From IMG/VR virus record IMGVR_UViG_3300045282_000174, positions 1 to 32,385 of that record: 32,385 bases of DNA; one strand, 5' to 3'. The notes below the pieces were generated by a model. The model saw nothing but the letters and a program-made list of their open reading frames with translations, was not told where the DNA came from and made no database searches. The first letter of the stretch is position 1, and the number at the start of each line of letters is the position of its first letter. The translations under genes were made by a program, and so were the position numbers. This stretch comes from a virus. Of the stretch, positions 1,322 to 15,247 are shown one piece after another.

Positions 1322-1340
1322 AATAGCGCCGGAGGCTATC
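1322..1340 (+). promoter_or_regulatory. 19-bp inverted repeat enclosing the ribosome site of the ParB-like gene
   Basis: AATAGC-GCCGGAG-GCTATC has the same 6-7-6 layout as the operator-like repeats at 4581, 4725, 10417 and 11673. The SD (GGAG) lies in the 7-base centre, so as RNA it would be the loop of a short ATAGC/GCTAT hairpin just 5' of the ATG at 1344. It could be a DNA operator or a translation control site. Confidence 0.4.
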
Positions 1341-1343
1341 AGA

Positions 1344-1964
1344 ATGTCCAAAGCTCCGGCCAAACCGCCGAACGCTACACTCAATTCGTCTCAAGAAAAA
1401 CCACAAACCTTTGTGCGTCCGACTGTGCGCGTCATGCGCCTGGCCGATCTAAAACCCGCCCCGTACAACCCCCGCACCATTTCTAAAGAAGCTCAGGACG
1501 CCCTCACCGAATCCTTGCGCGAGTTCGGCATCCTTGACGATATCGTGATGAATAAAAGGACCGGGCATATCGTGGCCGGGCATCAACGCTGGAAATCCCT
1601 CATGGACTCCGGCATCATAGAGGCCCCGGTAAAAGTGGTGGATTGGGACTTGGCCAAAGAAAAAGCCGCCAATCTTACCCTGAATAATCCCCACGCGCAA
1701 GGCCAGTTTACAGACGGCCTCCAAGCCATCATTGACGAGCTCAAAGAATCCATGCCCCTCGTTACCCATTCGACCGGGCTTGATCTCCTCTCGCAGGACG
1801 GCGATGACACGCCGCTCTCCACGCGCGGGATCACGCGCCCACCGGCGATGACCTGGGTCTTGTGCGGAATCCCTACGGTTAAATTTGGCGAAGTGGTAGA
1901 CCTGGTGGAAGGCTTGAAAAAAGCGACCGGCGCGCAAGTCCACATCAGCGTATCGGACCAATGA
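1344..1964 (+). CDS. ParB/Srx-like nuclease-fold protein
   Basis: 206 aa. Residues about 30-125 show the ParB-N/sulfiredoxin fold signature: LADLKPAPYNPR (about 33-44), a SLREFG helix, then GHIVAGHQR (74-82), the conserved GxxxxGHxR motif, and NLTLNN further on. Phage members are single-domain proteins often beside DNA methyltransferases; some have nuclease or CTPase activity. The C-terminal 70 residues have no recognised domain, and no HTH as in chromosomal ParB is seen, so it is unlikely to be the centromere-binding partner of the ParA at 9.7-10.3 kb. ATG is chosen from GGAGGCTATC at 1331-1340. Its end overlaps the following methyltransferase-like gene by 4 bases. Confidence 0.8.
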   Translation: MSKAPAKPPNATLNSSQEKPQTFVRPTVRVMRLADLKPAPYNPRTISKEAQDALTESLREFGILDDIVMNKRTGHIVAGHQRWKSLMDSGIIEAPVKVVDWDLAKEKAANLTLNNPHAQGQFTDGLQAIIDELKESMPLVTHSTGLDLLSQDGDDTPLSTRGITRPPAMTWVLCGIPTVKFGEVVDLVEGLKKATGAQVHISVSDQ

Positions 1965-2536
1965 GCGGCACGCAGACCAAGCGGAACAATTCAAACCTCG
2001 GAATTAAATTACGGCTGCGCGAACACTTCCTTGACCGCTACCACGCCGACAAGAGCCCCATAATTTTTGATGCGTGCTGCGCCGATTCTGTGCTTTGGAA
2101 TACGCTCAAAAAAAGATATAAATTCAAATACTGGGGCGTTGATAAACGGAGGCTATCGTCGGACATTCTCAAGATCGACTCGACCCGCATCCTGTCTATG
2201 GATGGTTGGGATTTCGATATCATCGACATCGACACTTGGGGAAGTCCGTTCTCACAGTGGTTTCAAATCCTCCCGCGCATCACAAAACCCATCACGGTAT
2301 TTTTAACCATCGGCTCGACCATGCACCACGGTTGCGCTACCAAAGAGATGATGCCGGCCGCTGGCCTGGGCGAGCTCACGCGCTACATGCCGGAGAGCTT
2401 TGGCCTGTCGCTCTCTCCTCACCTTATTGATGTGGCCCTTGGCCGCATCTATAGCCACGGCCTCAAAGCCGTGGAGTGTCTGCAAGGCAAAAGCGGAAAC
2501 ATGACCTACGTCGGAATACGAATGGAGAAAAACTAA
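1961..2536 (+). CDS. Class I SAM methyltransferase-like protein
   Basis: 191 aa. FDACCADSVLW (36-46) resembles a modified motif I of Rossmann methyltransferases. GVDKR (59-63) could be the acidic end of strand 2. DIIDIDTWGSPF (86-97) matches the D-x-D-x-[YWF]-G-[ST]-P motif IV seen in Trm1-type and some phage methyltransferases. Substrate is unknown (DNA, tRNA or other). The gene is coupled by 4-bp overlap to the ParB-like gene and by 1 bp to the Gp37/Gp68 gene, so the three form one translational unit. The Gly-rich loop of motif I is replaced by Cys-Ala residues, so activity is not certain. Confidence 0.55.
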   Translation: MSGTQTKRNNSNLGIKLRLREHFLDRYHADKSPIIFDACCADSVLWNTLKKRYKFKYWGVDKRRLSSDILKIDSTRILSMDGWDFDIIDIDTWGSPFSQWFQILPRITKPITVFLTIGSTMHHGCATKEMMPAAGLGELTRYMPESFGLSLSPHLIDVALGRIYSHGLKAVECLQGKSGNMTYVGIRMEKN

Positions 2537-3300
2537 TGTCTGAGAAAACGGCTATCGCCTGGACGGATCACACGTTCAATCCCTGGATGGGATGTGTGAA
2601 GGTAAGCGACGGATGTAAAAACTGCTACGCGGAAACGCTGACAAAAAATCGCATGGGCTTAGACGTGTGGGGCCTCACGAAAAAGCGCCAGCGCACCAGC
2701 CAAGACAATTGGAAAAACCCGCACGCCTGGAATGCTCAGGCCATCAAAGACCAAAGGCAGCACCGGGTTTTCTCTGGATCACTCTGCGATATTTTTGAGG
2801 ATCACAAAGATTTGAAGGCGATTCGCACGGACCTGTGGGCCACGATCCGGGCGACGCCCTATTTAGACTGGCAGCTCCTCACCAAACGCCCGGAGAACAT
2901 CCCCCTATTCCTGCCCCTGGATTGGGAGGACGGCTTTGCAAACGTGTGGCTCGGAACCTCCATTGAGGACATGCGCGTGGCCTGGCGCGCCGACGCCTTG
3001 CGGAAAATCCCGGCCCGCATTCGGTTCATCTCCTATGAACCGGCCCTAGGCCCCTTGGACAAGCTCAACCTCACGGGCATCCAATGGATCATCTATGGCG
3101 GGGAATCCGGCCCCGGCTACAGGGGTCATGACCTGGCCTGGCCGCGCGCGATGCGCGACCGCTGCAAAAAAGAAGGGATCGCCTTTTTCTACAAGCAATC
3201 CCCCGCCTGGCGTACCGAGATGGGTATCACGCTCGACGGTGAAACGGTTCGGCAGTATCCAAAGTCCGACGCCATCCAGTCGGAATTACAATTCGTCTGA
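2536..3300 (+). CDS. Phage Gp37/Gp68 (DUF5131) family, three-Cys motif protein
   Basis: 254 aa. NPWMGCVKVSDGCKNCYAE (15-33) carries C20, C27 and C30, the three-Cys motif of this family, which is related to radical-SAM enzymes. Later blocks (FSGSLCDIFEDH, LLTKRPENI, WLGTSIE, FISYEPALGPL, IIYGGESGPG, FFYKQ) are typical in order. Length is usual for the family. The reaction is not established; members commonly sit beside methyltransferase-like 'three-Cys-motif partner' genes, which fits the upstream neighbour. The start is the ATG at 2536, overlapping the previous TAA by one base. Confidence 0.85.
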   Translation: MSEKTAIAWTDHTFNPWMGCVKVSDGCKNCYAETLTKNRMGLDVWGLTKKRQRTSQDNWKNPHAWNAQAIKDQRQHRVFSGSLCDIFEDHKDLKAIRTDLWATIRATPYLDWQLLTKRPENIPLFLPLDWEDGFANVWLGTSIEDMRVAWRADALRKIPARIRFISYEPALGPLDKLNLTGIQWIIYGGESGPGYRGHDLAWPRAMRDRCKKEGIAFFYKQSPAWRTEMGITLDGETVRQYPKSDAIQSELQFV

Positions 3301-3330
3301 GTTCTCTAATTCGAAAGGAGGGTACACACA

Positions 3331-4167
3331 ATGTCATGGTTTAAAGTAGACGGAGATTTACCCGGCCATCCCAAAGTGCTGCGCTTGGCAGCTCTGACAG
3401 GCATGGAGCCGGACCTGGTGGTAGGCAAGCTCAATCGGCTATGGGGATGGGCTCAAAAGTATGCGGAAGATGGCGACCTAAGCCGGTTCGATCCAACCGA
3501 AATTAGCCTGGCCCTGGGCATCCCCCCAGGGATTGATTTTCTCAAAAATCTAATCGCGTGCGGCTTTGTAGATTCCTATCCGTACACCAGAATTCATGAT
3601 TGGTGGGACTACATCGGGCCATGGCTAAATGCCAAGTATAAACGCTCACCGGCAAAATGGAAACGTATAAGACGCCTCTATAATACGCCAGTTTCTCAAC
3701 ACCGCCATGTAACTGTTACAGCACCAGTGACAGAACAGTTACCTAACAGCGACGTAACTGGAAAGATAAGAGGAGATGTGATAAGAAAAGACGTTGAACT
3801 ACAAGACCCCCTTACCCCCACAAGTGGGGGCCTTGCTTCGCAGGAAAATCACCAGCCGGAAGGAGACACCGGCCAACCCCCAAACGCAGAAACCCCAAGG
3901 CCCGCAAAAAGAAGTCTTAGAGCCTTGGGGTTAAACCCCAGGGCCATTGCCAAGGCGCATCAAAAAGCCTTGGAGATGGAGGCCAAACGGCAGGCGGCTA
4001 TAGCCAAGGCTGAGGAACGCCAGCAGGAAACAGTCAGCGACATGACCGACGAGGAGCGCGACGAAATTATGCGGCAGAATGCCCCGCATCTCTGGATGAT
4101 GCGCCAAATCCGAAAAGGCAGGATCGTTGATATTAAAGTCATCACGCCCGACGTGGTAGCCGCGTGA
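3331..4167 (+). CDS. Phage replication-type protein with N-terminal winged helix
   Basis: 278 aa behind a good SD (AAAGGAGGG at 3315-3323). Residues 1-95 (MSWFKVDGDLPGHPKVLRLA..., LWGWAQKYAEDGDL, FVDS...IHDWW) match the first domain of phage replisome-organiser/DnaD-like proteins, which bind origin DNA. The middle (about 120-190) is Pro/Gly/Thr-rich linker, encoding a C5-G5 inverted repeat near 3824-3839. The C-terminus is Ala/Glu/Arg-rich and helical. By position, upstream of the regulatory region, an origin-binding initiator role is plausible but not shown. Confidence 0.55.
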   Translation: MSWFKVDGDLPGHPKVLRLAALTGMEPDLVVGKLNRLWGWAQKYAEDGDLSRFDPTEISLALGIPPGIDFLKNLIACGFVDSYPYTRIHDWWDYIGPWLNAKYKRSPAKWKRIRRLYNTPVSQHRHVTVTAPVTEQLPNSDVTGKIRGDVIRKDVELQDPLTPTSGGLASQENHQPEGDTGQPPNAETPRPAKRSLRALGLNPRAIAKAHQKALEMEAKRQAAIAKAEERQQETVSDMTDEERDEIMRQNAPHLWMMRQIRKGRIVDIKVITPDVVAA

Positions 4168-4334
4168 CGGATCGCCAGAAAAAGCTCGTTGATGAAATCG
4201 TGGCCCGCTGGCATGTGCGGAGTTACCGCCATATCTCCGTGCAGCAGGCCGCTTTAGACATCGGCGTGCTTTGCGGAATTATTTACGCCATGGAGCCGGA
4301 CCCCAAAGTGACCGGCAGCGCAAAACCGGCTTGA
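4164..4334 (+). CDS. Hypothetical 56-aa protein, HTH-like
   Basis: GTG start overlaps the previous TGA (GTGA at 4164-4167). The product MTDRQKKLVDEIVARWHVR... is basic and helical. SVQQAALDIGVLCGIIYAME could be a helix-turn-helix, but it is too short to be sure. It is preferred over the frame at 4271-4498, which starts at a TTG without a ribosome site and is Arg/Lys-biased. Confidence 0.5.
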   Translation: MTDRQKKLVDEIVARWHVRSYRHISVQQAALDIGVLCGIIYAMEPDPKVTGSAKPA

Positions 4335-4488
4335 GCTCCGCTTATGGAATCGCGCCAAACGAACGGAACCTGGCCGGGATTAAACGAACGCAGGCCAAAC
4401 ACATAAAGCCCCGGTCTGGAAAAAAGACACGGCTAAAAAACGAAGCTAGGCCCATAGAATCGCGTCGATTGACGGAAAGGCTCTCTAT

Positions 4489-4507
4489 AGTAGCCTAAAC
4501 AGCTATC
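4489..4507. promoter_or_regulatory. Degenerate operator-like inverted repeat
   Basis: AGTAGC-CTAAACA-GCTATC: the right half is exact and the left half matches GATAGC at 4 of 6, with the same 7-base centre length as the better sites. Confidence 0.3.
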
Positions 4508-4534
4508 ATCCAGCGTCCTACCTATCGACGGAAA

Positions 4535-4554
4535 GATTTTACCCCCCTAAAATC
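4535..4554 (+). repeat. Perfect 7-bp hairpin with six-C loop
   Basis: GATTTTA (4535-4541), CCCCCC, TAAAATC (4548-4554). There is no following T-run, so an intrinsic terminator is unlikely. It could be a cruciform or protein site. Confidence 0.45.
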
Positions 4555-4580
4555 GAATCCTAGGCCCTTGTACCTACTGG

Positions 4581-4599
4581 CATAGCCGTTTAAGCTATC
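4581..4599. promoter_or_regulatory. Operator-like inverted repeat
   Basis: CATAGC-CGTTTAA-GCTATC: 5-bp arms, AT-rich 7-base centre. Its centre is 144 bp upstream of the centre of the 4725-4743 site. Confidence 0.45.
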
Positions 4600-4624
4600 A
4601 CCAGGCCCGCCCCGGCATACCCTT

Positions 4625-4656
4625 ACATGTTCAAATGTACATGTTCATTTATACAT
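4625..4656 (+). repeat. 14-bp direct repeats shared with the parA upstream region
   Basis: Two tandem units, ACATGTTCAAATGT and ACATGTTCATTTAT, then ACAT. The reverse complement of 10361-10396 contains nearly the same sequence (ATGTTCAAATAT then ACATGTTCATTTGA). Repeats like this next to a ParA/RHH cassette are typical partition-complex binding sites; this second copy is about 5.7 kb from the cassette. Confidence 0.6.
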
Positions 4657-4682
4657 CCCTACCCCATTAAACCCATCGGTTG

Positions 4683-4711
4683 TTAACTCATGTTAAGCCT
4701 GAGACGATAAT
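4683..4711 (+). promoter_or_regulatory. Possible upstream promoter
   Basis: TTAACT (4683-4688), 17-bp spacer, GATAAT (4706-4711). It matches sigma70 at 4/6 and 5/6 and ends just before the better promoter at 4717. Confidence 0.3.
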
Positions 4712-4716
4712 ATCCC

Positions 4717-4745
4717 TTGTAAGCGATAGCATTTAATGCTATCAT
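4717..4745 (+). promoter_or_regulatory. Promoter with embedded 19-bp operator (site A)
   Basis: -35 TTGTAA (4717-4722), 17-bp spacer, -10 TATCAT (4740-4745). A perfect inverted repeat GATAGCAT-TTA-ATGCTATC (4725-4743) fills the spacer and overlaps the -10, so binding there should block polymerase. Predicted start near 4752, about 30 bases before the ATG at 4781. Almost the same block occurs at 10409-10437. Confidence 0.65.
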
Positions 4746-4780
4746 TAAGTAGAAGGAAGAAGAAGAAACAGGAGGCTATC

Positions 4781-5098
4781 ATGACCTACCAGGAAGCCAA
4801 AGAGAAACTAGGAAATCGGACCAGCCGGAAACTCGCGAATAATACATACCTTATACTGGACGGCCAAAACATCGCCGTTCGGCTCCATGCCACAAACGTC
4901 CTAACCTTCACGCCCCAGGGAACCGTGATTTATAACTCTGGCGGCTGGCAGACACGAACCACGAAAGAACGGATGAACGCTTACGGGCAGGCTTTTATTT
5001 GCCAGCGCAGCGGGTCGTGGTTGATCGGCGGCAATCCCTACCAAGACGGCATCGAATTAAACGCCGCAACCGGCGCGCCAATTCAGGCGGTGGCGTAA
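4781..5098 (+). CDS. Conserved phage hypothetical protein, 105 aa
   Basis: ATG 4781 directly after GGAGGCTATC (4771-4780). The sequence runs KEKLGNRTSRKLANNTYL, IAVRLHATNVLTF, NSGGWQTRTTKERMN, a pattern I recognise from uncharacterised phage proteins, probably a small beta-rich fold, without a known function. First gene of a long coupled operon driven by the operator-bearing promoter at 4717-4745, hence probably early. Confidence 0.65.
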   Translation: MTYQEAKEKLGNRTSRKLANNTYLILDGQNIAVRLHATNVLTFTPQGTVIYNSGGWQTRTTKERMNAYGQAFICQRSGSWLIGGNPYQDGIELNAATGAPIQAVA

Positions 5099-5256
5099 TG
5101 TTTACCTACCGCCTTGAAGTTCTCATTGACGGGGAGTGGGTCATAGCCGCCTCTGGCCTATCCAGCATCGAAGCTCAAGCCGAGGCCCTGGCGTTTACGC
5201 GCTTCAAAATTATTCCCGACGTAGCAGAAAATACTATCATTAGGGAGGTCCGCTAA
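5098..5256 (+). CDS. Hypothetical 52-aa protein
   Basis: TAATG overlap with the gene before it (ATG 5098). The product MFTYRLEVLIDGEWVIAASG... is predicted beta-alpha-beta and resembles small single-domain phage proteins. No family is assigned. The next gene starts on its stop codon (TAATG at 5254-5258). Confidence 0.5.
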   Translation: MFTYRLEVLIDGEWVIAASGLSSIEAQAEALAFTRFKIIPDVAENTIIREVR

Positions 5257-5429
5257 TGGAATCCCTATGGGAAGTCAAAGAATTCATTGCTTGGTTGGAA
5301 AAAAACAAGGACCATTTTCTGACCTACTCCGTCGAGGAGATAGCGAACCTCGCAAAGATGGCCGGGTTCAATCCGATGGTCGTCAATCAATGGCAGACGC
5401 GCGAAAAATTCCGACGGGTGCAGCCGTGA
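5256..5429 (+). CDS. Hypothetical 57-aa protein
   Basis: ATG 5256 overlaps the preceding TAA. GGGAGG at about 5243-5248 serves as SD. The product (MESLWEVKEFIAWLEKNKDH...) is helical and acidic, then basic at the end (REKFRRVQP). SVEEIANLAKMAGFNPMVVNQW could be a small helix-turn-helix. No function is assigned. Confidence 0.5.
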   Translation: MESLWEVKEFIAWLEKNKDHFLTYSVEEIANLAKMAGFNPMVVNQWQTREKFRRVQP

Positions 5430-5815
5430 ACGTCCTACCCTTTAATGTCCCGGTCATCACCTTGACGCCGGAGGAAGTGGAAATCCGGGCATGGCTCAAG
5501 GCGAACCGGGACACGCTGGCCGGGCGGGACGCGACTGAGGTGGCAAGCCTGGCGGTCCTTTGCGGGTTTCATATCGCTGATGTTTGTTTTGCCCTATCGA
5601 ATTTTCAGGACGCCATGCAGGGCTCGCATCTGGAAAACCGGCTGGCCTTCCAAGCCTGGCGGCAGGAGATGGCGATGGCCGAATTTTTTAAGCTCAGGAA
5701 AAAATTGGAGGAGCCGGAGGAGTTGAACCTTTTACCGCAATGGCGCGAGCTCGTCGCGTACTCAATCACAGGCGAAGAAACAACCTTTAAAGGAGGCTAT
5801 CAAAATGTCCCATGA
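5426..5815 (+). CDS. Hypothetical 129-aa helical protein
   Basis: The GTG at 5426 overlaps the upstream TGA and is preferred over the 5267 start, which would overlap the whole preceding gene. The product VNVLPFNVPVITLTPEEVE... has a helical core (EVASLAVLCGFHIADVCFAL) and a charged coiled-coil-like segment (AMAEFFKLRKKLEEPEE). The C-terminus overlaps the next start (5805) by 11 bases. No family is recognised. Confidence 0.5.
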   Translation: MNVLPFNVPVITLTPEEVEIRAWLKANRDTLAGRDATEVASLAVLCGFHIADVCFALSNFQDAMQGSHLENRLAFQAWRQEMAMAEFFKLRKKLEEPEELNLLPQWRELVAYSITGEETTFKGGYQNVP

Positions 5816-6794
5816 AATCGACAGCATGATGTACGTCGGAGAAAAGCCCTGGCACAAGCTAGGGAAGGAATTAGGGAAAATCGCGACGGCAGCGGAGGCC
5901 CTGGCCGCGTCGGGCTTGGATTGGACGGTCAGTAAACGCCCGGTGTTTTTGGAGGGCGGCGTAAAGATCGAGGACCATCTGGCGGTCGTTCGGGATGACA
6001 CGAACGCGCCCCTGGGCATCGTGGGCCACATGTACAAGCCGCTACAGAATAAGGAAGCCTTTTCCTTTTTTGATGCGGTCGTAGGCGAGAAAGCCGCCAT
6101 CTACCACACAGCCGGATCACTCCGGGGCGGGCAGCTCACCTGGATACTGGCGAAATTGCCGGGCTCCATTCGGGTCGTCAAAGATGACCTGGTAGATAAA
6201 TTCCTACTCCTCACGAACGCCCACAATGGCCTGCGCGCGGCCCGGATGATGTTCACGCCGATTCGCGTGGTCTGTGCGAACACGTTGAACATGTCCATGA
6301 GCCTCAAGAATTCGGAAATGGCTCAGGCCCGCAAAGACGGCGAGGAGGTTTTGGGCAATGCCTGGATACCTCACTTTGGCGACATCGGGGCCAAGGTCGC
6401 AGAGGTTCGGAATTCGATGGGGATCATCTCCGCTCAGTACACGATGTTTGCGGAAGCCGCCAAGCGTCTCGCGGCCACGCAGCTCACGAGAGACGCCTGG
6501 AAAAAGTACACGGAGAACATCGGCATCCGGCCCAGGGGCTTGAAGGATACCGAGCTCGCCCCGGTCACTCGCGGGCTCTTGGAAAAGGTGTCCTTCCTAT
6601 TCGAGAAGGGGAAGGGCAACGACATGGCAGGCGTCAAGGGAACCGCCTGGGCAGCTTACAACGGCGTGGTGGAATACGTGGACTACCGCGCGACCAAAGA
6701 CCAGGACGCCCGCAGCCGCTCCATTCTATTCGGCTCTGGCGCGGCCCTCAAGCAGAAAGCCTGGGACCAGGCTCTACTCATCGCCAAGAAGTAA
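5805..6794 (+). CDS. DUF932 phage/plasmid-like protein
   Basis: 329 aa with SD AAAGGAGGCTATC just before the ATG. N-terminal MSHEIDSMMYVGEKPWHKLG and later PLGIVGHMYKPLQNKEAFSFFD, LLLTNAHNG, FTPIRVVCANTLNMSM and the C-terminal NGVVEYVDY...RSRSILFGSG are hallmarks of DUF932 (the phage/plasmid TIGR03299-like group). These proteins are common on phages and plasmids and their biochemical role is not settled; links to DNA recombination or anti-restriction have been suggested. Length is normal. A strong hairpin follows the stop. Confidence 0.85.
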   Translation: MSHEIDSMMYVGEKPWHKLGKELGKIATAAEALAASGLDWTVSKRPVFLEGGVKIEDHLAVVRDDTNAPLGIVGHMYKPLQNKEAFSFFDAVVGEKAAIYHTAGSLRGGQLTWILAKLPGSIRVVKDDLVDKFLLLTNAHNGLRAARMMFTPIRVVCANTLNMSMSLKNSEMAQARKDGEEVLGNAWIPHFGDIGAKVAEVRNSMGIISAQYTMFAEAAKRLAATQLTRDAWKKYTENIGIRPRGLKDTELAPVTRGLLEKVSFLFEKGKGNDMAGVKGTAWAAYNGVVEYVDYRATKDQDARSRSILFGSGAALKQKAWDQALLIAKK

Positions 6795-6796
6795 AC

Positions 6797-6849
6797 GACC
6801 TTCCCCTTGCCCGTCGCTCACGGAAGGACGGCGGGCGGGGATGAAGGTC
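6797..6849 (+). terminator. Long imperfect hairpin after the DUF932 gene
   Basis: GACCTTC (6797-6803) pairs with GAAGGTC (6843-6849), and inside it GCCCGTCG (about 6809-6816) pairs with CGGCGGGC (about 6829-6836) with one wobble or mismatch. No poly-T follows, so it may slow transcription, protect the 3' end or serve as an RNA-processing site rather than terminate fully. Downstream genes lack an obvious new promoter. Confidence 0.4.
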
Positions 6850-6883
6850 TTAACGTCGGATGATTCTAAGGGAGGCTACCACA

Positions 6884-7069
6884 ATGGCAGAGAAAACCGT
6901 GATGTTCGAATACCTGGACGGGCTCAGGGAATCAGGCGTCTGCAATATGTTCGGAGCACGTCCCTACCTACAGGAAGCCTTTAACCTTCCCAAAAACGAA
7001 GCCAGCGCGATCCTCAGCGAATGGATGGCGACGTTCGGACAGCGACATCATAAGGAGGCCAAGTCATGA
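6884..7069 (+). CDS. Conserved phage hypothetical protein, 61 aa
   Basis: ATG 6884 after GGGAGGCTACC (6870-6880), preferred over 6860, which would place the SD inside the gene. The product MAEKTVMFEYLDGLRESGVCNMFGA... carries the FEYLDxLRESGVxNMFGA pattern frequent in short phage proteins of unknown role. Helical. Its end overlaps the next ATG (7066). Confidence 0.65.
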   Translation: MAEKTVMFEYLDGLRESGVCNMFGARPYLQEAFNLPKNEASAILSEWMATFGQRHHKEAKS

Positions 7070-7455
7070 AACGAGGGAAACGAAAAACAGACGAGGAGCG
7101 AGTGCTGGCAATCATGGAGAGGGGCGACGGCAGCGCATACCACAAGCCAGTCCCTCCGCGCGGCCCATCGTTCAAGACAACCGATAAGGATTATTTGCTC
7201 ATCGCGGAAATCGCAAAGCGCGCCGTGATCTTGGCTCATAAGTTAGGCAAGGATTACGATTGCACGACGGTAAGCATGGACGTGACCGCCTGCCACGCCA
7301 ACGGAAACCCGCTCAGGCTGGACGATCTACTCAAGGCCGATGACGGGAATTTTGGCCATGACGTGTTCGGCATCAATAGATTCATCGACAGGAGCACCGG
7401 CAAGCTGACGGACTTTTTCAGACCACGGTATTCCATACCAAAGGGGCGGTCATGA
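7066..7455 (+). CDS. Conserved phage hypothetical protein (DUF6874-like), 129 aa
   Basis: ATG at 7066 overlaps the preceding stop. SD GGAGG sits at 7053-7057. The central and C-terminal parts (IAKRAVILA, TTVSMDVTACHANGNPLRL, LLKADDGNFGHDVFGINRFID, FRPRY) match a family of phage proteins that I associate with DUF6874. Function unknown. The basic N-terminus (MKRGKRKTDEER) suggests nucleic-acid contact. Confidence 0.55.
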   Translation: MKRGKRKTDEERVLAIMERGDGSAYHKPVPPRGPSFKTTDKDYLLIAEIAKRAVILAHKLGKDYDCTTVSMDVTACHANGNPLRLDDLLKADDGNFGHDVFGINRFIDRSTGKLTDFFRPRYSIPKGRS

Positions 7456-7784
7456 AACTCAGCGAATGGATGACAGAGGAGCTGGACGGGCACGGGATGT
7501 TTGACGTTGCCTACGTCGAAGGTAAATTGTTGGAGCTCACGGGGAAGCACTTCAAGCTCCCGACATTCTCCGCAGGCGCGGCGCGGTCGGAAGTCGGCAA
7601 ACATCCCAAAGGGCCGGAGTGGGTCAATCCTAAATTGCCCGATCACTTGAAGATGTGCGCGGGCTACCAGGTGGCGAATATCGTGGTGGGAGAGCTCTTA
7701 GGCAAAGACCCCGCTCCTTATATAAGCGGGCGCGGCTCACACTTCCGGGCCTGCGTCGCAGCCCTCAAGGAGGCCGGGCTATGA
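7452..7784 (+). CDS. Hypothetical 110-aa protein
   Basis: ATG overlaps the previous stop by 4 bases. The product (MKLSEWMTEELDGHGMFDV...) is mixed alpha/beta, ends GSHFRACVAALKEAGL, and has no recognised motif. The SD of the next gene (AAGGAGG) lies inside its 3' end. Confidence 0.5.
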   Translation: MKLSEWMTEELDGHGMFDVAYVEGKLLELTGKHFKLPTFSAGAARSEVGKHPKGPEWVNPKLPDHLKMCAGYQVANIVVGELLGKDPAPYISGRGSHFRACVAALKEAGL

Positions 7785-8041
7785 AAAAACACAAAGATTA
7801 TTTGTGCTGGTGCGGTAGGGATTCCCATAGAAAATCTCAGCTCAACCTAACCCATGACGGCGGCAGGACATGGAGCAAGGCGACTATCGCGCACGCCCTG
7901 GTACGGCTCACAGATCAAACCTCGACGTGTACGTGTCGCGGGTGGGATATGGCTCAGGTCATTCCAGACCTGGCCAGAATCAAAGAGGAATGGAAGCGGC
8001 ACGTCGATTGGGCGAAAACAATTAAGGAGGCCCACGCATGA
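7781..8041 (+). CDS. Hypothetical 86-aa protein with Cys pairs
   Basis: ATG 7781 in an ATGA overlap, SD AAGGAGG upstream. CWCGRDSH near the N-terminus (C9, C11, H16) and CTC near residue 50 could form a small metal site, fitting a trend for Cys/His modules in this genome. The C-terminus is helical and basic (IKEEWKRHVDWAKTIKEA). No family is recognised. Confidence 0.5.
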   Translation: MKKHKDYLCWCGRDSHRKSQLNLTHDGGRTWSKATIAHALVRLTDQTSTCTCRGWDMAQVIPDLARIKEEWKRHVDWAKTIKEAHA

Positions 8042-8364
8042 GCTACCAATGGACCTACGATAAGATGAACCCGCCCGGCCCTATCCAATACTCCAAGACG
8101 GTCAAGGCTCTCAGGGCCATCACGTCGGAGTCATCGCGGCACGACGAAATCAATAGGTCGGGGATGCGCTTTACGGTCAGCACCCTCCACCTGGACGGCA
8201 AGCCGGGCCGGGCTGATTGCACAATCGCCTACCAAACCATCGGGACGCGGTTCGGCTGGATGATCTCAAAGACAAACCATAAGGAGATCATCGCCCACGC
8301 CGCGCGCGAGCTGGCCGTCCTGGTAGCAGCGAGGCCGGTCGTGCAGCGGGAGCTCATCCCATGA
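8038..8364 (+). CDS. Hypothetical 108-aa protein
   Basis: ATG overlaps the previous stop; SD AAGGAGG at about 8023-8029. The product MSYQWTYDKMNPPGPIQYSK... is alpha/beta; FGWMISKTNHKEIIAHAARELAVL is a plausible C-terminal helix pair. No function is assigned. Confidence 0.5.
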   Translation: MSYQWTYDKMNPPGPIQYSKTVKALRAITSESSRHDEINRSGMRFTVSTLHLDGKPGRADCTIAYQTIGTRFGWMISKTNHKEIIAHAARELAVLVAARPVVQRELIP

Positions 8365-8525
8365 TGAAAGCCAGATTCCTAGTCGAAATCGAATGGAGCA
8401 AAAAATCAGGTTGGAATGAAAAAGAGCTTGGCCTGGAAATCGGCACGACGCTTAACGCCCACCTATTCAGCGTCACGCCAGAGAATGAATACAAGATCGT
8501 TGTTCGAAAAGCGGAGGGAAAATAA
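8361..8525 (+). CDS. Hypothetical 54-aa protein
   Basis: ATG-ATG start in an ATGA overlap with the preceding gene. The product MMKARFLVEIEWSKKSGWNE... is probably a small beta-sheet protein. No family is recognised. Support comes only from coupling and compact spacing. Confidence 0.4.
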   Translation: MMKARFLVEIEWSKKSGWNEKELGLEIGTTLNAHLFSVTPENEYKIVVRKAEGK

Positions 8526-8527
8526 AA

Positions 8528-8701
8528 ATGGAAACCAAAACGAGTTGGCCGTTCCTCTGTAGGGTCTGCGGGCAGGCAGGAGGATTCTACTGTCGGATGT
8601 GCAAGAGCCATTTCTGCACAGCCAATGGATGCGCGAACGAGCCGGAAGGCGAAAAGCATCCCTGCACGGCGGCGCAGCCGGTGGAGGCCAATCATGTTTA
8701 A
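8528..8701 (+). CDS. Small Cys-rich zinc-ribbon-like protein, 57 aa
   Basis: Begins 2 bases after the previous stop. C11-x2-C14, C22-x2-C25, C30, C35 and C46 give two or more CxxC knuckles (FLCRVCGQAGGFYCRMCKSH). Probably zinc-binding, acting as a DNA-, RNA- or protein-binding adaptor; no specific family. Its stop overlaps the next gene's start by 8 bases. Confidence 0.5.
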   Translation: METKTSWPFLCRVCGQAGGFYCRMCKSHFCTANGCANEPEGEKHPCTAAQPVEANHV

Positions 8702-9041
8702 GGACGATCAGCAGCGGGCCTACGTCTGCAAGGTTCTACTCGGCTCGCTTGGGATGGGACGTTACTGGACTGAGCACGGGCCAACCGAGGAGGCCAAGGA
8801 CATTTGGATGAAGTGGAAGTCAGGGCCATGGTCCCACGGCGAGAAAATTATATGGGGCCTGGCCTGGTCACTCTGGACGGGCGATGATGACCCGGCTATC
8901 CCGTTTGGAGAGATCATCTACACCCTCGACGGCGATAGGTTGAAGCTCGTAGGTTCACTGGTGGTAGCCCTCCACAGCAGCTCTGCACTCCAAAAGTGGA
9001 TCAACCTTTATGGGCCACAGGCCCCGGTAGGTTCGCTATGA
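8694..9041 (+). CDS. Hypothetical 115-aa protein
   Basis: ATG 8694 with SD GGAGG (8682-8686) inside the previous gene; preferred over a longer frame from 8625. The product (MFKDDQQRAYVCKVLLGSLGMGRYW...) is Trp-rich in the middle (IIWGLAWSLWTG), probably helical. No family recognised. Confidence 0.5.
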   Translation: MFKDDQQRAYVCKVLLGSLGMGRYWTEHGPTEEAKDIWMKWKSGPWSHGEKIIWGLAWSLWTGDDDPAIPFGEIIYTLDGDRLKLVGSLVVALHSSSALQKWINLYGPQAPVGSL

Positions 9042-9454
9042 GCCGGGAAATGTACCAAGGCCGTCGGAAGTCTGACGGCTCTTTTGAGATTCTGGCCGAC
9101 GGCGACGCTCTGGATATCAAGCCCTCTCTCAAGATATCCAATCACTCGCCCACGGGTTTCGAGTGCGCCTACGGGGGCTCTGGCCCGGCTCAATCGGCCT
9201 TGGCGATCCTCTTGGACTACACCGGGAAGCGGTACTTTGCCGAACGCTACCACCAGGATTTCAAATGGAAGTACATCGCCACGTCTGAAAAAAATGGGTT
9301 CCTTATTACGTCCGTCCAGGTGGACGGCTTTATTGAGGACGTGCGGGACCAGGAGGCCAAAGCCGGTAGGCCCCTGTGCGGCGTCTGCCTATGCCCGGCG
9401 CACATCCATACGGACGACGGTGTGTGCCTGGACTGTAAGAGGGGCTGCGGGTGA
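9038..9454 (+). CDS. DUF6166-like protein with C-terminal Cys/His knuckle
   Basis: 138 aa, ATG in an ATGA overlap. Residues about 35-95 (FECAYGGSGPAQSALAILLDYTG, YHQDFKWKYIA) match the DUF6166 pattern common in phages and plasmids; function unknown. The last 30 residues add CGVCLCPAHIHTDDGVCLDC, a CxxC-x-C...H...CxxC module found in several other proteins here. It is the last + strand gene of the early run and ends 2 bases from the end of the convergent partition cassette. Confidence 0.6.
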   Translation: MSREMYQGRRKSDGSFEILADGDALDIKPSLKISNHSPTGFECAYGGSGPAQSALAILLDYTGKRYFAERYHQDFKWKYIATSEKNGFLITSVQVDGFIEDVRDQEAKAGRPLCGVCLCPAHIHTDDGVCLDCKRGCG

Positions 9455-9456
9455 AA

Positions 9457-9711
9457 CTACGGAGCTGGCGGGAATCGTTTCTCAAAGAGCTCGCGCGCGA
9501 CCTCCGCGATCCAGCGGCCCTCTTTGGCACATTGGATTTTCATGCGGCGGTGCAGCTCTGCCGGGATTTCCAGCATAAGCCGCTTGGTCGGCGTCTTGCC
9601 CTGGACGAACTGCGTAGGCGTCAAGGGTGCAGCCGGGGCCTCCGGCTCAAGGGTGACGGTGCTCTCCTCATTTCCGAATATGGTGGTTTGAACCGGCTGT
9701 CTCTTTTTCAT
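9457..9711 (-). CDS. Ribbon-helix-helix partner of ParA (centromere-binding, ParG-like)
   Basis: 84 aa. The C-terminal half [20 protein letters not shown] then [17 protein letters not shown] is a clear ribbon-helix-helix: a short strand, helix A and helix B. The N-terminal 40 residues are flexible (Thr/Pro/Glu-rich), as in ParG-type proteins whose unstructured tail stimulates the ParA ATPase. ATG at 9711 lies inside the end of parA (overlap about 44 bp), so the two are co-translated. Expected to bind the 14-bp repeats at 10361-10396 as parS and operator. ParG homology is inferred from architecture and position. Confidence 0.7.
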
Positions 9712-10339
9712 GGATAAATTTCTCCTCAAGTTCGTTGACCAGGCTCCTGATATCTTTGGAGGCAAGCCCGGCAGCGTCATCCTCAATCACGGTCGAGCCC
9801 ACGCCAATAGTCGCGGCGAATACCGTCCGCGCGGCGATGTGCGTGTCCAGTACCGGCACTCCATAGCGGCTCATCGCCCCGGCGACCTCTCGCCCCAGGA
9901 TCGTGTTGTTTTGTTTTCGATTGATGACGAAGGCCGTTTTCATGGCGGGGTTGTAGTAGAGCGCGGACTTAATCAGCTTGACGGTATCCTCCGCACTCCA
10001 AATCCCCACGCCGGACGGCTCGACCGGGATCAGGCAGAGCTCGCTCACCATGAGCGCGGACCTGGAAATGTCCGTCAAGTTCGGCGGGCCGTCTATAATC
10101 AAATGGTCGTAGGGCTTGACCAGGCCCGGCGCATCTTCGTGAAGGTTCTCTTTGTCCAGGCCGATGACCGGGAACCGCTGCGGCTCTTTCCTTTTCTCGG
10201 ACCAGCGGCGCGCGGATTTCTGAGGATCGGCGTCGGCTACCAGGACGCGCCTGCCCCGGATGGCCAGCTCCATCGCTATGTGAATGGCCAGCGTGGTTTT
10301 CCCAACGCCGCCCTTTTGATTCAGGATCGAGATAATCAA
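9668..10339 (-). CDS. parA: ParA-family partition ATPase
   Basis: 223 aa, short type Ib (ParF-like) without an N-terminal HTH. Deviant Walker A KGGVGKTT (9-16) with its signature Lys, DADPQ (36-40), and IIDGPP (81-86) as Walker B. It is a cytoplasmic ATPase that forms dynamic gradients on the nucleoid to segregate low-copy DNA. The start is TTG at 10339, chosen for AAGGAGG five bases upstream and because [16 protein letters not shown] is the standard beginning. Together with the downstream RHH gene and upstream repeats this is a complete partition cassette, implying a plasmid-like prophage. Confidence 0.88.
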
Positions 10340-10360
10340 GGGGCCTCCTTATACATAGCT

Positions 10361-10396
10361 TCAAATGAACATGTATATTTGAACATATATACATGG
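10361..10396 (-). repeat. Partition-site/operator-like repeats upstream of parA
   Basis: Read on the minus strand: ATGTTCAAATAT and ACATGTTCATTTGA in tandem, flanked by TATGTAT-like sequence. Only 20-55 bases before the parA start, and nearly identical to 4625-4656. Probable binding sites for the RHH protein, serving as parS and for autoregulation. Confidence 0.6.
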
Positions 10397-10408
10397 CCTA
10401 TTCAACCC

Positions 10409-10437
10409 TTGTAAATGATAGCCTTTAATGCTATCTT
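10409..10437 (+). promoter_or_regulatory. Promoter with embedded operator (site B)
   Basis: TTGTAA (10409-10414), 17-bp spacer, TATCTT (10432-10437). The inverted repeat GATAGC-CTTTAAT-GCTATC (10417-10435) overlaps spacer and -10. It differs at only a few positions from the promoter at 4717-4745, so the same regulator should act on both. Drives the secreted-protein gene at 10470. Confidence 0.65.
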
Positions 10438-10469
10438 TATAGTAGGATAAAGGAACACTAGGAGGCGTT

Positions 10470-10847
10470 ATGAAAGTGATGATGATTTTACTGGCCTTGC
10501 CGCTGGCAGCTCTGGCGGCTCCCATGACGGAATGCAAAAACGCTCAGATGATTGGCTTTACGGAAGGCTACCCCGCTGGCATGACAAACCGGCTCAAGCC
10601 GGAGACGGGCTGCTACTACGACCTGGCCGGGACCACGCCATTTCAGAAAACGGCCAGCGGCTATCTCCTCGCGCCCGTGCCCGGCCTCTACATGAAGCAC
10701 GGCTACGTCCCGGTATGGCTCCAAACAACCCAGGACATCCCGCAGGATTCGCTCATCCAAGGCCACGCCGTCTATACCGGCCCACACACCTACCAGGGAT
10801 TGAACGGGTTTACCCAAACGGTCCACGGGTTCAAACTGGCGCAATAA
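10470..10847 (+). CDS. Secreted/periplasmic protein of unknown function, 125 aa
   Basis: SD AGGAGG (10460-10465) and ATG 10470. A Sec signal peptide is clear: MKVMMILLALPLAALAAPM, with probable cleavage after ALA or LAA. The mature part has two Cys (ECKNAQ, TGCYYDL) that could form a disulfide, followed by a beta-rich stretch (GYLLAPVPGLYMKHGYVPVWL). No family is recognised. It stands alone between divergent parA and the next gene with its own promoter, like a moron or lysogenic-conversion gene, so it may be made from the prophage state; this is inference. Confidence 0.6.
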   Translation: MKVMMILLALPLAALAAPMTECKNAQMIGFTEGYPAGMTNRLKPETGCYYDLAGTTPFQKTASGYLLAPVPGLYMKHGYVPVWLQTTQDIPQDSLIQGHAVYTGPHTYQGLNGFTQTVHGFKLAQ

Positions 10848-10895
10848 TCGACTCCTAAAAGCCCGTACCCTCCGATTGAAAATAAGAGGTTTGTT

Positions 10896-10914
10896 GATAG
10901 CAATTTATGATATG
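10896..10914. promoter_or_regulatory. Operator-like inverted repeat upstream of the 10932 gene
   Basis: GATAGC-AATTTAT-GATATG: left half exact, right half 4 of 6, same 7-base centre. A possible -10 TATGCT (10911-10916) lies at the same offset as in sites A and B, though no good -35 accompanies it. Confidence 0.4.
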
Positions 10915-10931
10915 CTCTGCGCCGGTCTGAT

Positions 10932-11543
10932 ATGGCATACACTCACTTTTTCCGACGGGACGCGATTCTGGACCCCGCCTCATTCTCATTGGCGGTTCAG
11001 GATATAAGCCTCCTACGGTCCAATTTGGCCCCTCTAGGCGTGATCCTCTCAGGGCCTACCGGCGACGGCAAGCCGGAAATCAACGATTTCACGATAGCTT
11101 TTAACGGCCCCCGGAACTGCGGTCATCCCTATATGGACCTGGGCAAACCCTACCCATCGCCTCAAGCCTCTGGCGTCATGACCATGGAAAACCCCATCGC
11201 GGACGGCCCGCCCTACATCTCTGGCCCGTACCTCAATACCAGGGCGTGCGGCGGGAACTGCGCGGCAGACCCGCTCGTAGTCGATCAGAAATACATGCAG
11301 CGGGTTTGGGAGAGGCCGGACGATCAAGGCCGGTTCCTGGTTATTGTGCAAACCTACTTTAAGCCCTATGATCTCATGGTGACGGCATCGTTGGTCCGTC
11401 TCAAAGAACGGTTAGGTGAGCAAATTCAAATCACGTCCGACGGCAACGAAAAAGGATTCGAGGACGCCAAACGAATCTGCCGAGAGCTCTTTGGGTTCCC
11501 CGCCCGCTTCGAACTCCTGCCAGCCGACAGCCCGAACGTCTGA
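10932..11543 (+). CDS. Conserved phage hypothetical protein, 203 aa
   Basis: ATG 10932 with little SD; the predicted leader would be only about 10 bases. Sequence blocks such as INDFTIAFNGPRNCGHPYMDLGKPYP, NTRACGGNCAADPL and LVIVQTYFKPYDLMVTASLVRLKERLG...ITSDG resemble a class of uncharacterised phage proteins found in early regions. CGGNC plus upstream Cys could bind metal. Function unknown. Confidence 0.6.
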   Translation: MAYTHFFRRDAILDPASFSLAVQDISLLRSNLAPLGVILSGPTGDGKPEINDFTIAFNGPRNCGHPYMDLGKPYPSPQASGVMTMENPIADGPPYISGPYLNTRACGGNCAADPLVVDQKYMQRVWERPDDQGRFLVIVQTYFKPYDLMVTASLVRLKERLGEQIQITSDGNEKGFEDAKRICRELFGFPARFELLPADSPNV

Positions 11544-11661
11544 ACATCCCCACGCTTGCCCGGAGTGTCATCAACCCTGGACCTGTCACGCGCCCCACGA
11601 CCGGGTATTTAATTCCCTGAGTTGCGAGCCGTGCCGGGCCATCCGGCAGGAAGGTTCATAG
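11416..11661 (+). CDS. Doubtful 81-aa frame with C-terminal Cys pairs
   Basis: The GTG start at 11416 overlaps the preceding gene by 128 bases and has no strong SD. The non-overlapping C-terminus HACPECHQPWTCH...SCEPC contains two CxxC pairs typical of a zinc knuckle, which is why it is listed. The Ser/Thr-rich N-terminal part looks like a shadow of the other frame. It could be the end of a longer protein joined by frameshift, or a remnant. Confidence 0.3.
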   Translation: MSKFKSRPTATKKDSRTPNESAESSLGSPPASNSCQPTARTSEHPHACPECHQPWTCHAPHDRVFNSLSCEPCRAIRQEGS

Positions 11662-11672
11662 TAGGCAAAAAT

Positions 11673-11691
11673 GATAGTATTAACTGCTATG
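11673..11691. promoter_or_regulatory. Operator-like inverted repeat upstream of the RHH gene at 11729
   Basis: GATAGT-ATTAACT-GCTATG, 5 of 6 in each half. It is followed by GCTATGCTATAAA (11693-11705), where TATAAA is a possible -10. This places a member of the operator family immediately before a gene for a probable ribbon-helix-helix protein, suggesting autoregulation. Confidence 0.45.
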
Positions 11692-11728: not shown

Positions 11729-11941
11729 ATGCCGAAACGATATTGGGCCAAGGGTTTGAAGCGGGATAAACAATTCCAGGTTCGCATGAGCGCCGAGGAG
11801 TATAAAGATTTTCAGCGTGCCGCGAAAGAGGCCAAGCTGTCCCTGGTGGTTTACGCCCGGCATCGCATCTTAGGTATTCCGATCCGCGCGGCCCGGCAGG
11901 AGCGGAATCATAAGCCCGCACTCTCGACTTCCTCCGTCTAA
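11729..11941 (+). CDS. Ribbon-helix-helix (CopG/MobC-like) protein, 70 aa
   Basis: SD GGGAGG at about 11716-11721. KQFQVRMSAEEYKDFQRAAKEAKLS then LVVYARHRILGIPI matches an RHH: strand FQVRM, helix A, turn, helix B. Members bind DNA as dimers, as repressors or plasmid relaxosome accessory proteins. It resembles the minus-strand protein at 13408-13581 (both end helix B with R(x)RxxGIPI). As it lies just downstream of an operator copy it is a good candidate for the regulator of the 19-bp sites; that link is inference. Confidence 0.6.
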   Translation: MPKRYWAKGLKRDKQFQVRMSAEEYKDFQRAAKEAKLSLVVYARHRILGIPIRAARQERNHKPALSTSSV

Positions 11942-11963: not shown

Positions 11964-12350
11964 TTGACCGCTCTTGAACTCGTAAAATCGCGGCTGAAAA
12001 GCTATGAAGCACTCTACCTCATCATGGACGATGTGCAGGCCAAAAAGGTCATGGTGGGATGGATGCAGTATTTTCCTACGTGCCGCGACTTCCCTGTTAA
12101 AGAGGCCGACGATCCTCATGGTGCTCTCGCCCGGTTATGGGAAAGCCTTGGACCGCTCGATTGGGAAAAACTGGCGGCGCGCGCCAAGGCTCCGGCATCC
12201 CGCGTGAAGCGCGAATTTGAACGGCTGCGCGCGGTCCACCTGGTTTGGCCGGACGGTACAATAGACTCGAATGCCCTGGTGCTCATCCAAACGGAAGTCG
12301 GGATATCGCTGTCCGGGGTTGTGAAAAATGCCAAGGCGGTGAAGCGATGA
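11964..12350 (+). CDS. Hypothetical 128-aa protein, possible wHTH
   Basis: The first available start is TTG 11964 with a poor SD; ATG 12024 (MDDVQAKKV) is an alternative. The C-terminal half WEKLAARAKAPASRVKREFERLRAVHLVWPDGTI reads like a winged helix-turn-helix, with recognition helix RVKREFERLR followed by a wing. Function unknown; it could be a regulator or replication accessory protein. Confidence 0.45.
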   Translation: MTALELVKSRLKSYEALYLIMDDVQAKKVMVGWMQYFPTCRDFPVKEADDPHGALARLWESLGPLDWEKLAARAKAPASRVKREFERLRAVHLVWPDGTIDSNALVLIQTEVGISLSGVVKNAKAVKR

Positions 12351-13407: not shown

Positions 13408-13581
13408 CTACCCCATCCGTGATCCTGCTATGGCTTTTTTTATTGGAATGCCGAAAGCCCGGCAGCGCACGTAATCGCTCCGCGACAGACCCGCCAGCTT
13501 CGCCCGCCTCTTGAGCTCATCGCGCTCTGCCTGGTTGAGTTTGAACATGAACGGCACGGGGCGGCGCGGGCGTCGGCTCAT
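13408..13581 (-). CDS. RHH/MobC-like small DNA-binding protein, 57 aa
   Basis: ATGA overlap with the preceding minus-strand gene. After an Arg/Pro-rich start (MSRRPRRPVP), FMFKLNQAERDELKRRAKLA then GLSRSDYVRCRAFG is the pattern of plasmid relaxosome MobC-like and CopG-type RHH proteins. The GIPI that follows is shared with the protein at 11729-11941. Last gene of the HNH-recombinase operon; no relaxase is visible, so a regulatory or accessory recombination role is more likely. Confidence 0.55.
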   Translation of the reverse strand: MSRRPRRPVPFMFKLNQAERDELKRRAKLAGLSRSDYVRCRAFGIPIKKAIAGSRMG

Positions 13582-15159: not shown

Positions 15160-15247
15160 CCTCGAACCTCCCGCGATAGCACCTTATAGTAGCATTCCAA
15201 TTCAAGGAAAGGTTTTGTTAAAATCAAAAATTTCCCGAAAAATTTCC

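What the first reader, a model, noticed from the sequence alone, without database searches (positions are those of the whole stretch)
1322..11691. Family of up to seven 19-bp inverted repeats (GATAGC-N7-GCTATC) over 10 kb
Sites at 1322, 4489, 4581, 4725, 10417, 10896 and 11673 all have 6-bp halves separated by exactly 7 bases, with AT-rich centres in most. Four are close to consensus. At 4725 and 10417 the repeat fills the spacer and -10 of near-identical promoters (TTGTAA-17-TATCWT). This looks like one regulon controlling the early operon, the secreted-protein gene, and the RHH gene at 11729, i.e. a prophage maintenance or immunity circuit. No CI-type repressor is seen; the RHH proteins at 11729 or 13408 are the candidates.
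Basis: partly seen in the sequence, partly recalled or inferred. Interest (0 to 1): 0.75.

Follow-up and report, generated by a model that had tools for sequence, protein, structure and literature searches.

The report
Phage early-promoter operators that switch sequence
The repeated GATAGC…GCTATC sites are real and several sit in promoters of a phage's early genes, and a related phage has a different repeated site before some of the same genes, which suggests one repressor system whose DNA code changes from phage to phage.

Summary
In this 32,385-base phage record GATAGC is the top-ranked of 4,096 six-base arms at 6-7-6 spacing, and 7 of the 8 sites with up to 2 mismatches are intergenic. The 4725 and 10417 sites fill near-identical promoters. 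The main evidence is comparative: a 44.7-kb relative (G042) has no GATAGC family but its own palindrome, GTGNCATNATGNCAC, 8 times with up to 2 mismatches (backwards control 0), before the same two genes (homologues of 10932 and RHH 11729) and in two further matching regions. Best reading: one phage repressor controls early promoters through dispersed operators, and its specificity has diverged between relatives, as in heteroimmune Cluster A mycobacteriophages. The repressor is unproven: candidates are the NikA-like RHH 11729 (operator before its own gene in both lineages), the winged-helix-like 11964, the HTH 15289, or a protein outside the fragment. Symmetric, mostly intergenic operators and no CI-type gene found make this a new variant of a known kind.

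The parts
1322..1340 (.). Operator-like palindrome AATAGC-N7-GCTATC (1 mismatch), just upstream of the ParB_N-domain gene 1344-1964; right arm overlaps its ribosome-binding site; weakest by context
4489..4507 (.). Palindrome, 2 mismatches, in the 4334-4780 intergenic region after the rep-like gene
4581..4599 (.). Palindrome, 1 mismatch, same intergenic region; CCCTTGTA precedes it as at 4725 and 10417, but 5 bp further away
4628..4655 (+). Four contiguous heptads TGTWCAW in alternating orientation (1 mismatch in all); candidate second binding site of the ParG-like protein
4717..4745 (+). Promoter TTGTAA-17-TATCAT for the operon starting at 4781
4725..4743 (.). Exact palindrome GATAGCATTTAATGCTATC filling the spacer and overlapping the -10
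9457..9711 (-). ParG-like ribbon-helix-helix protein, start overlapping the end of parA
9668..10339 (-). parA (type Ib-like), TTG start with an AGGAGG ribosome-binding site (by eye)
10358..10385 (.). Four heptads TGTWCAW (3 mismatches in all) in the parA promoter region; candidate parA operator and centromere
10386..10415 (-). Predicted parA promoter TTTACA-18-TATATA, running up to the heptads
10409..10437 (+). Promoter TTGTAA-17-TATCTT for the 10470 gene
10417..10435 (.). Exact palindrome GATAGCCTTTAATGCTATC over the rightward promoter and 1 bp from the -35 of the predicted leftward parA promoter
10470..10847 (+). Short protein with signal-peptide-like start (by eye); 32% over 81 residues to L007
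10896..10914 (.). Palindrome, 2 mismatches, 36 bp upstream of the start of gene 10932; the relatives' own palindrome starts 48 bp upstream of the homologue
10932..11543 (+). Conserved gene of unknown function (about 50% identical in the relatives)
11673..11691 (.). Palindrome, 2 mismatches, 56 bp upstream of the start of RHH gene 11729; the relatives' own palindrome starts 62 bp upstream of the homologue, after the shared flank GTAGGSAAAAATGA
11729..11941 (+). NikA-like RHH protein; first candidate for the operator-binding repressor
11964..12350 (+). Winged-helix-like protein (weak evidence), next gene in the same direction; second candidate
13408..13581 (-). Second NikA-like RHH protein, 38% identical to 11729 over 45 residues; tblastn found no separate counterpart in the relatives held
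15175..15193 (.). Possible eighth, degenerate site (3 mismatches) beside the leftward HNH/resolvase genes; the relatives have an exact site of their own family in the corresponding region
15289..15540 (+). Small HTH protein before the terminase genes, conserved in the relatives; third candidate

Best explanation
The palindromes are operators of one phage-encoded repressor that sits on and next to early promoters. Bound at 4725 and 10417 it covers the spacer and -10 and would block RNA polymerase; at 11673 it would control the RHH gene and probably the winged-helix-like gene behind it, i.e. autogenous control. It therefore shuts early genes, either to keep a prophage silent (immunity) or as an early-to-late switch. 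Related phages have operators before some of the same genes but with another sequence, so the repressor's specificity has diverged with them. The parA-parG-like pair is a separate but adjoining circuit: its RHH protein probably binds the two TGTWCAW heptad arrays, one in its own promoter and one above the early operon. Shown: sites, promoter overlap at 4725 and 10417, gene neighbourhood, second palindrome family before matching genes, heptads. Inferred: repression, a single binder, its identity (RHH 11729 about 0.4, 11964 about 0.2, HTH 15289 about 0.15, other or outside the fragment about 0.25), immunity, heptad binding.
For: Family above chance and mostly intergenic. Promoter overlap at 4725 and 10417. 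Relatives G006, G013 and G042 carry a different palindrome upstream of the homologues of 10932 and RHH 11729; GTGNCATNATGNCAC with up to 2 mismatches gives 8 sites in G042, 8 in G013, 4 in G006 and 1 in G043 against 0 in the backwards control in all four. In G042 three of the 8 (1398, 11372, 16634) overlap a predicted promoter above the 90% background. Further matching regions: the DNA after the rep-position gene (8709, 8883 with 4489, 4581, 4725) and the region before the HTH/terminase genes (16634 with 15175). The motifs are exclusive: the relatives' motif gives 0/0/1 hits at up to 0/1/2 mismatches in the window and the window's motif 0/0/2 in G042. RHH 11729 is NikA-like in both and changes 2 of 3 predicted DNA-facing strand residues (QFQVR against RITVR; register recalled from Arc). 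An RHH protein, MobC of RA3, represses itself from an imperfect palindrome between -35 and -10 (PMC4175270, passages). Heptad arrays occur at two places only (next best stretch elsewhere 9 mismatches).
Against: No binding or expression data. The 2-mismatch sites in G042 are not exceptional one by one: 102 of 4,096 arms have more sites at that level. Site 2698 in G042 lies inside a gene, and 6 of the other 7 overlap open frames that I judge spurious. On the strand of the gene behind them, G042 2698, 7192, 8709, 8883 and 12288 and window 4581 and 10896 have no predicted promoter above the 90% background level. Geometry differs (19-bp 6-7-6 against a 15-bp palindrome), odd for orthologous repressors. 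In 6-7-6 the half-site centres are 13 bp apart, unlike Arc, which rather suits a winged-helix or HTH dimer (recalled). The relatives are few and close to one another (RHH 97-100% identical), so they count as about one event. 15175 is a poor match (3 mismatches). The 10932 and RHH promoters were used to find the relatives' motif, so they are not independent evidence for it.
Confidence: 0.68

Rival explanations
1. The palindromes are dispersed centromere (parS-like) sites bound by the ParG-like RHH protein, as the dispersed partition sites of phage-plasmid N15 are (N15 recalled).
For: A type Ib-like parA with an RHH-like partner starts beside the 10417 site, and the palindromes are dispersed.
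Against: The parA promoter holds a separate heptad array that fits the ParG/omega type better, present once more at 4628. The relatives have a palindrome family, and no ParA was found in them (the records may be incomplete). Centromeres need not fill the -10 of unrelated promoters.
Confidence: 0.1
2. The sites are iterons bound by the replication protein at 3331, with the 4334-4780 region as origin.
For: Three sites lie right after the rep-like gene, as two do in the relative.
Against: Spacings of 92 and 144 bp are not iteron-like; the others lie up to 7 kb away before other genes; two fill near-identical promoters.
Confidence: 0.06
3. The sites are operators of a host regulator borrowed by the phage.
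For: The binder is not identified in the fragment; hosts of window and relatives may differ.
Against: Matching phage genes carry different operators in related phages, and a phage gene for a DNA-binding protein (11729) carries the site itself. The host is unknown, so this was not tested directly.
Confidence: 0.08
4. The palindromes act as RNA hairpins (terminators or attenuators).
For: 4725 folds better than its shuffles (z -3.4; 1 of 200 shuffles as good).
Against: No terminator-like site in 4300-4800; of six stretches folded the other five have z between -1.7 and +2.1; no Rfam match at gathering threshold; at 4725 and 10417 the sequence lies over the predicted -10, upstream of transcription.
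Confidence: 0.04
5. Chance or duplicated promoter copies: only 4725 and 10417 are related, by duplication, and the rest are chance.
For: Similarity of the two promoters extends beyond the palindrome.
Against: 7 of 8 sites intergenic, first arm of 4,096; the genes behind 10896 and 11673 carry another palindrome family in the relatives.
Confidence: 0.04

Closest known systems
Cluster A mycobacteriophage immunity (L5, Bxb1; stoperators)
   Same: Many copies of one binding site over the genome; heteroimmune relatives with distinct site consensus sequences (PMC6550527, passages seen).
   Different: Stoperators are 13-bp, asymmetric, mostly away from promoters, and the repressor blocks elongation there; here the sites are symmetric, mostly intergenic, and some lie on promoters. 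No CI-type repressor was found among the ORFs scanned; that repressor family itself was not searched for.
Phage P1 C1 operators
   Same: Plasmid prophage with a partition system (recalled) and dispersed operators of one repressor: 22 C1 operators (PMC8546580, passages seen).
   Different: P1 operators are asymmetric 17-mers; no CI/C1-type domain seen here in the ORFs scanned.
MobC of plasmid RA3 (RHH autorepressor)
   Same: Relaxosome-associated RHH protein repressing itself from an imperfect palindrome between -35 and -10 (PMC4175270, passages seen).
   Different: One operator on a conjugative plasmid; no phage regulon. No relaxase domain showed up in the 34 window ORFs scanned with Pfam.
pSM19035 delta/omega partition (heptads)
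   Same: RHH partition protein; 7-bp repeats overlapping promoters of partition and other genes; at least four contiguous heptads needed for full ParA ATPase activation (PMC9499535, passages seen). Both arrays here have four.
   Different: Heptad TGTWCAW instead of WATCACW; two arrays of four instead of six sites of 7-10. The ParA resembles those of enterobacterial and cyanobacterial plasmids.

Membership tests
Type Ib ParA-ParG partition module | Small ParA ATPase of the plasmid partition family | tested here: met
   NCBIfam NF041546, 239 bits against a cut-off of 180; 46-50% identical to the 30 plasmid ParA matches listed
Type Ib ParA-ParG partition module | RHH protein encoded directly downstream of parA | tested here: met
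   9457-9711 overlaps the end of parA. Each profile match is weak: Pfam RHH_10, ParG and Omega all below their cut-offs, PDB ParG E 0.2 and omega E 1.7; tblastn to two proteins behind other parA genes, 38-45% over 38-39 residues, E 8e-5 or better
Type Ib ParA-ParG partition module | Repeat array in the parA promoter | tested here: met
   Four heptads at 10358-10385; binding not shown
Type Ib ParA-ParG partition module | Plasmid stabilisation | not testable with these tools
   Needs a stability assay
P1 C1 / Cluster A type dispersed-operator immunity | Many copies of one operator over the early region | tested here: met
   Seven sites in 10 kb; eight with up to 2 mismatches in the relative
P1 C1 / Cluster A type dispersed-operator immunity | Asymmetric operators | tested here: not met
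   Sites are inverted repeats
P1 C1 / Cluster A type dispersed-operator immunity | Recognisable master repressor gene | tested here: inconclusive
   No CI-type domain in 34 window ORFs scanned with Pfam, but the window is a fragment and ORFs from terminase onward were not scanned; C1 and Cluster A repressors were not searched for by name
P1 C1 / Cluster A type dispersed-operator immunity | Confers superinfection immunity | not testable with these tools
   No isolate
Arc/NikA-type RHH regulators | RHH fold | tested here: met
   PF21983 above cut-off in window and relative; AlphaFold model of low confidence (mean pLDDT 63.7) with strand-helix-helix; four best Foldseek hits Arc, VapB, AtaR, NikA, all with E above 2
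Arc/NikA-type RHH regulators | Binds an operator in its own promoter | tested here: inconclusive
   Operator present upstream of the gene in window and relatives; binding not shown

The most novel reading that the evidence does not exclude
A small relaxosome-type (NikA-like) RHH protein has become the master repressor of a phage lineage. It reads a set of dispersed symmetric operators over the early promoters, including its own, and the whole operator set changes sequence together between relatives. In this phage one of the two exact operators lies over the divergent parA/10470 promoters, between heptad array and early gene, so the same repressor would tie immunity to plasmid partition.
Probability: 0.27. 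Interest if true: 0.75.

Novelty: new variant of a known kind. Interest (0 to 1): 0.56.

Why it matters
Phage immunity groups are known in detail from few lineages (my judgement). Here metagenomic DNA gives two related phage types with parallel operator sets before some of the same genes, so a repressor and its DNA code could be found by swapping operators between them. It would also show how a plasmid-type partition system is wired into phage early control.

Tried and rejected
Looking for the same palindrome elsewhere: the promoter-operator pattern had 0 hits in viral contigs. Of all 208 loci 8 carried a second site with up to 1 mismatch; I saw no family among them and read these hits as chance. 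Among 41 of the 80 portal relatives, 5 records had one site with up to 1 mismatch against 1 record in the control.

Searches without relatives: 6 kb of DNA around parA in the phage set; ParA in viral and genome contigs; DUF932 and RHH 11729 in viral contigs; RHH 11729 in the phage and plasmid sets. These pattern scans miss relatives: later found a DUF932 homologue in L007. ParA was not found in 41 of the 80 portal relatives (without a positive control) or in G006, G013, G042, G043 (controls rang in 14 of 14).

Upstream regions of eight plasmid or phage parA genes showed no GATAGC palindrome; they carry other repeats, e.g. TTTACAG, and Vibrio phage vB_VpaM_MAR has CAAATGTACATTTG, which resembles part of the heptads. 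The 28-base heptad block had no match better than 6 mismatches in the loci held. I first took the palindromes for partition sites; the heptads and the relatives without ParA argued against it.

L009 has another palindrome, TCATTCAA-N-TTGAATGA (1 exact, 3 with up to 1 mismatch), one copy upstream of an HTH gene before the terminase. It suggests a third specificity, but the contig holds little early DNA and the HTH protein did not align with 15289, so I did not use it as evidence. In the same test L007 and L015 showed only families without two exact copies (up to 4 near copies in L007), L014 none above my threshold, and L017 and L034 one GC-rich pair that I did not pursue.

The AlphaFold model of 11964 is poor (mean pLDDT 52.6) and settles nothing. 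A paper on type Ia partition promoters was looked at for N15 (passages) and not used.
Full report
WHAT THE WINDOW IS. The window is the whole of one IMG/VR virus record of 32,385 bases, classed linear, so probably a fragment. It holds an early half (about 1-15.5 kb) and a structural half from the terminase genes (15.9 kb) onward, whose proteins match portal relatives.

THE OBSERVATION. All seven sites are present. In 100 Markov resamples of the window there were on average 0.87 sites with 2 mismatches and none with 0 or 1; the window has 2 exact, 2 with one mismatch and 4 with two. Of all 4,096 six-base arms at 6-7-6 spacing, GATAGC has the most sites with up to one mismatch and is the only one with two exact sites. 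Over spacings 0 to 20 only spacing 7 has more than one intergenic hit (7). Seven of the 8 sites with up to 2 mismatches are intergenic although intergenic DNA is 11.3% of the window by my own gene map.

ANATOMY. At 4725 and 10417 the palindrome lies in the 17-bp spacer and reaches into the -10 of TTGTAA-17-TATCAT and TTGTAA-17-TATCTT. The first scores 11.2, above the maximum (10.7) of 600 random stretches of the window; the second 9.4, just under their 97.5% point of 9.5 (that background is mostly coding and GC-rich, which flatters intergenic sites). The best plus-strand scores at the other six window sites, 15175 included, run from 5.9 to 8.9, where the background 90% point is 6.8; 4581 (5.9) and 10896 (6.7) fall below it. 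Three sites lie in the intergenic region after a rep-like gene (3331-4167; PHROG replication initiation protein), before the operon that I start at 4781. Others precede genes 1344 (ParB_N domain), 10470, 10932 and RHH 11729.

On the minus strand, parA (9668-10339) meets the NCBIfam ParA_partition equivalog (239 bits, cut-off 180) and is 46-50% identical to plasmid ParA proteins that are followed by ParG. The next gene, overlapping its end, encodes an RHH-like protein; each profile match is weak, but its two best PDB sequences are ParG and omega (E 0.2 and 1.7). So 10340-10469 is a divergent promoter region, with a predicted leftward promoter TTTACA-18-TATATA whose -35 begins 1 bp from the palindrome. 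It also holds four heptads TGTWCAW in alternating orientation (10358-10385, 3 mismatches in all). A second such array is at 4628-4655 (1 mismatch), upstream of the 4725 promoter. I scored runs of four; the heptads flanking both arrays have 3 or more mismatches, and apart from overlapping registers of these two the next best stretch in the window has 9. The two regions match at 25 of 28 bases in opposite orientation; the best of 60 resamples was 19. In pSM19035 the RHH partition protein omega binds 7-bp repeats overlapping promoters, and four contiguous heptads are the minimum for full ParA activation (PMC9499535, passages). I infer that the ParG-like protein binds these arrays.

THE COMPARISON. 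Portal relatives were fetched (199 found, best 80 kept). A blast of window proteins against the fetched loci showed that L017 and L034 carry homologues of 10932 (50%), RHH 11729 (40-42% over 52 residues), 11964 (38-39%), the resolvase and the HTH 15289. Before the first two of these genes they have no GATAGC palindrome but share another motif, GTGKCAYAATG, in the RHH case after the conserved flank GTAGGSAAAAATGA. As a palindrome, GTGNCATNATGNCAC, it occurs with up to 2 mismatches 8 times in G042 (44,665 b), 8 in G013, 4 in G006 and 1 in G043; read backwards the pattern gives 0 in all four. In G042 this arm is alone in first place of 4,096 by exact sites (2) and shares first place by sites with up to one mismatch (4), but 102 arms have more sites with up to two, so the two-mismatch sites are not significant one by one. 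The discovery used the 10932 and RHH promoters, so these two are not independent evidence for the motif; the other six are.

MAPPING. On L320, reverse-complemented, the G042 sites are at 1398 (before a gene at 1456), 2698 (inside a gene), 7192, 8709 and 8883 (after the rep-position gene), 11372 (before the 10932 homologue), 12288 (before RHH) and 16634 (before the HTH/terminase genes). Seven of 8 lie outside genes as I annotate them, but six of these seven overlap open frames in the list that I judge spurious. Three of the 8 (1398, 11372, 16634) overlap a predicted promoter above the 90% background; the other five do not on the strand of the gene behind them. Window counterparts are 4489/4581/4725, 10896, 11673 and the degenerate 15175 (3 mismatches). 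Neither motif has a site with up to 1 mismatch in the other phage. No ParA was found in G042.

MECHANISM. The simplest reading is a single repressor with dispersed operators over early promoters, its specificity diverging between relatives. RHH 11729 is my first candidate: NikA-like in both lineages, with the operator before its own gene in both, at the syntenic place, and with two of three predicted DNA-facing residues different (QFQVR against RITVR; the register is by recalled analogy with Arc). MobC of RA3 is a precedent for a relaxosome-type RHH autorepressor acting from a palindrome between -35 and -10 (PMC4175270, passages). Against it: the two operators differ in geometry, and half-sites 13 bp apart are unlike Arc (recalled). 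The winged-helix-like 11964 follows in the same direction and the HTH 15289 is conserved too. The second RHH (13408-13581, minus) is a 38% paralogue over 45 residues. Immunity and early shut-off cannot be told apart here.

KNOWN SYSTEMS. Cluster A mycobacteriophages show distinct site consensus between heteroimmune relatives (PMC6550527, passages), and P1 has 22 dispersed C1 operators (PMC8546580, passages). Both use asymmetric sites. Seven searches of the paper library, most with capped lists, listed no paper that by title or start of abstract describes this motif or an RHH master repressor with dispersed symmetric operators; I saw listings only apart from the passages named, and the library lacks most subscription papers.

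LIMITS. Everything is sequence inference. The relatives used are close to one another. ORFs from the terminase onward were not scanned for regulators in the window, and only 11 ORFs of G042 were. The host is unknown.

Noticed in passing
window 984-1057: ARAGORN reports a tRNA-Met (CAT) gene, but the Rfam scan at gathering threshold gives no match in the window, so it is doubtful.
   Followed up: no
L009:3199-3254 and 4777-4793: Another portal relative carries three copies of TCATTCAA-N-TTGAATGA (one exact), one before an HTH gene next to the terminase: possibly a third operator specificity.
   Followed up: partly
window 2536-3300 and 5805-6794: A DUF5131 gene and a DUF932 phage/plasmid-like gene (TIGR03299), both above curated cut-offs.
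   Followed up: no
window 1344-1964; L320:12850-14181 (-): A 206-residue ParB_N-domain protein in the window, but a 443-residue one in the relative whose C-terminal part looks like a methyltransferase by eye.
   Followed up: partly
L320:11358-12524 (-): The protein at the rep position of the relative carries a MUG113/T5orf172 domain match.
   Followed up: no
window 13408-13581 (-) and 11729-11941 (+): Two NikA-like RHH paralogues in one phage, where only one was found in the relatives.
   Followed up: partly
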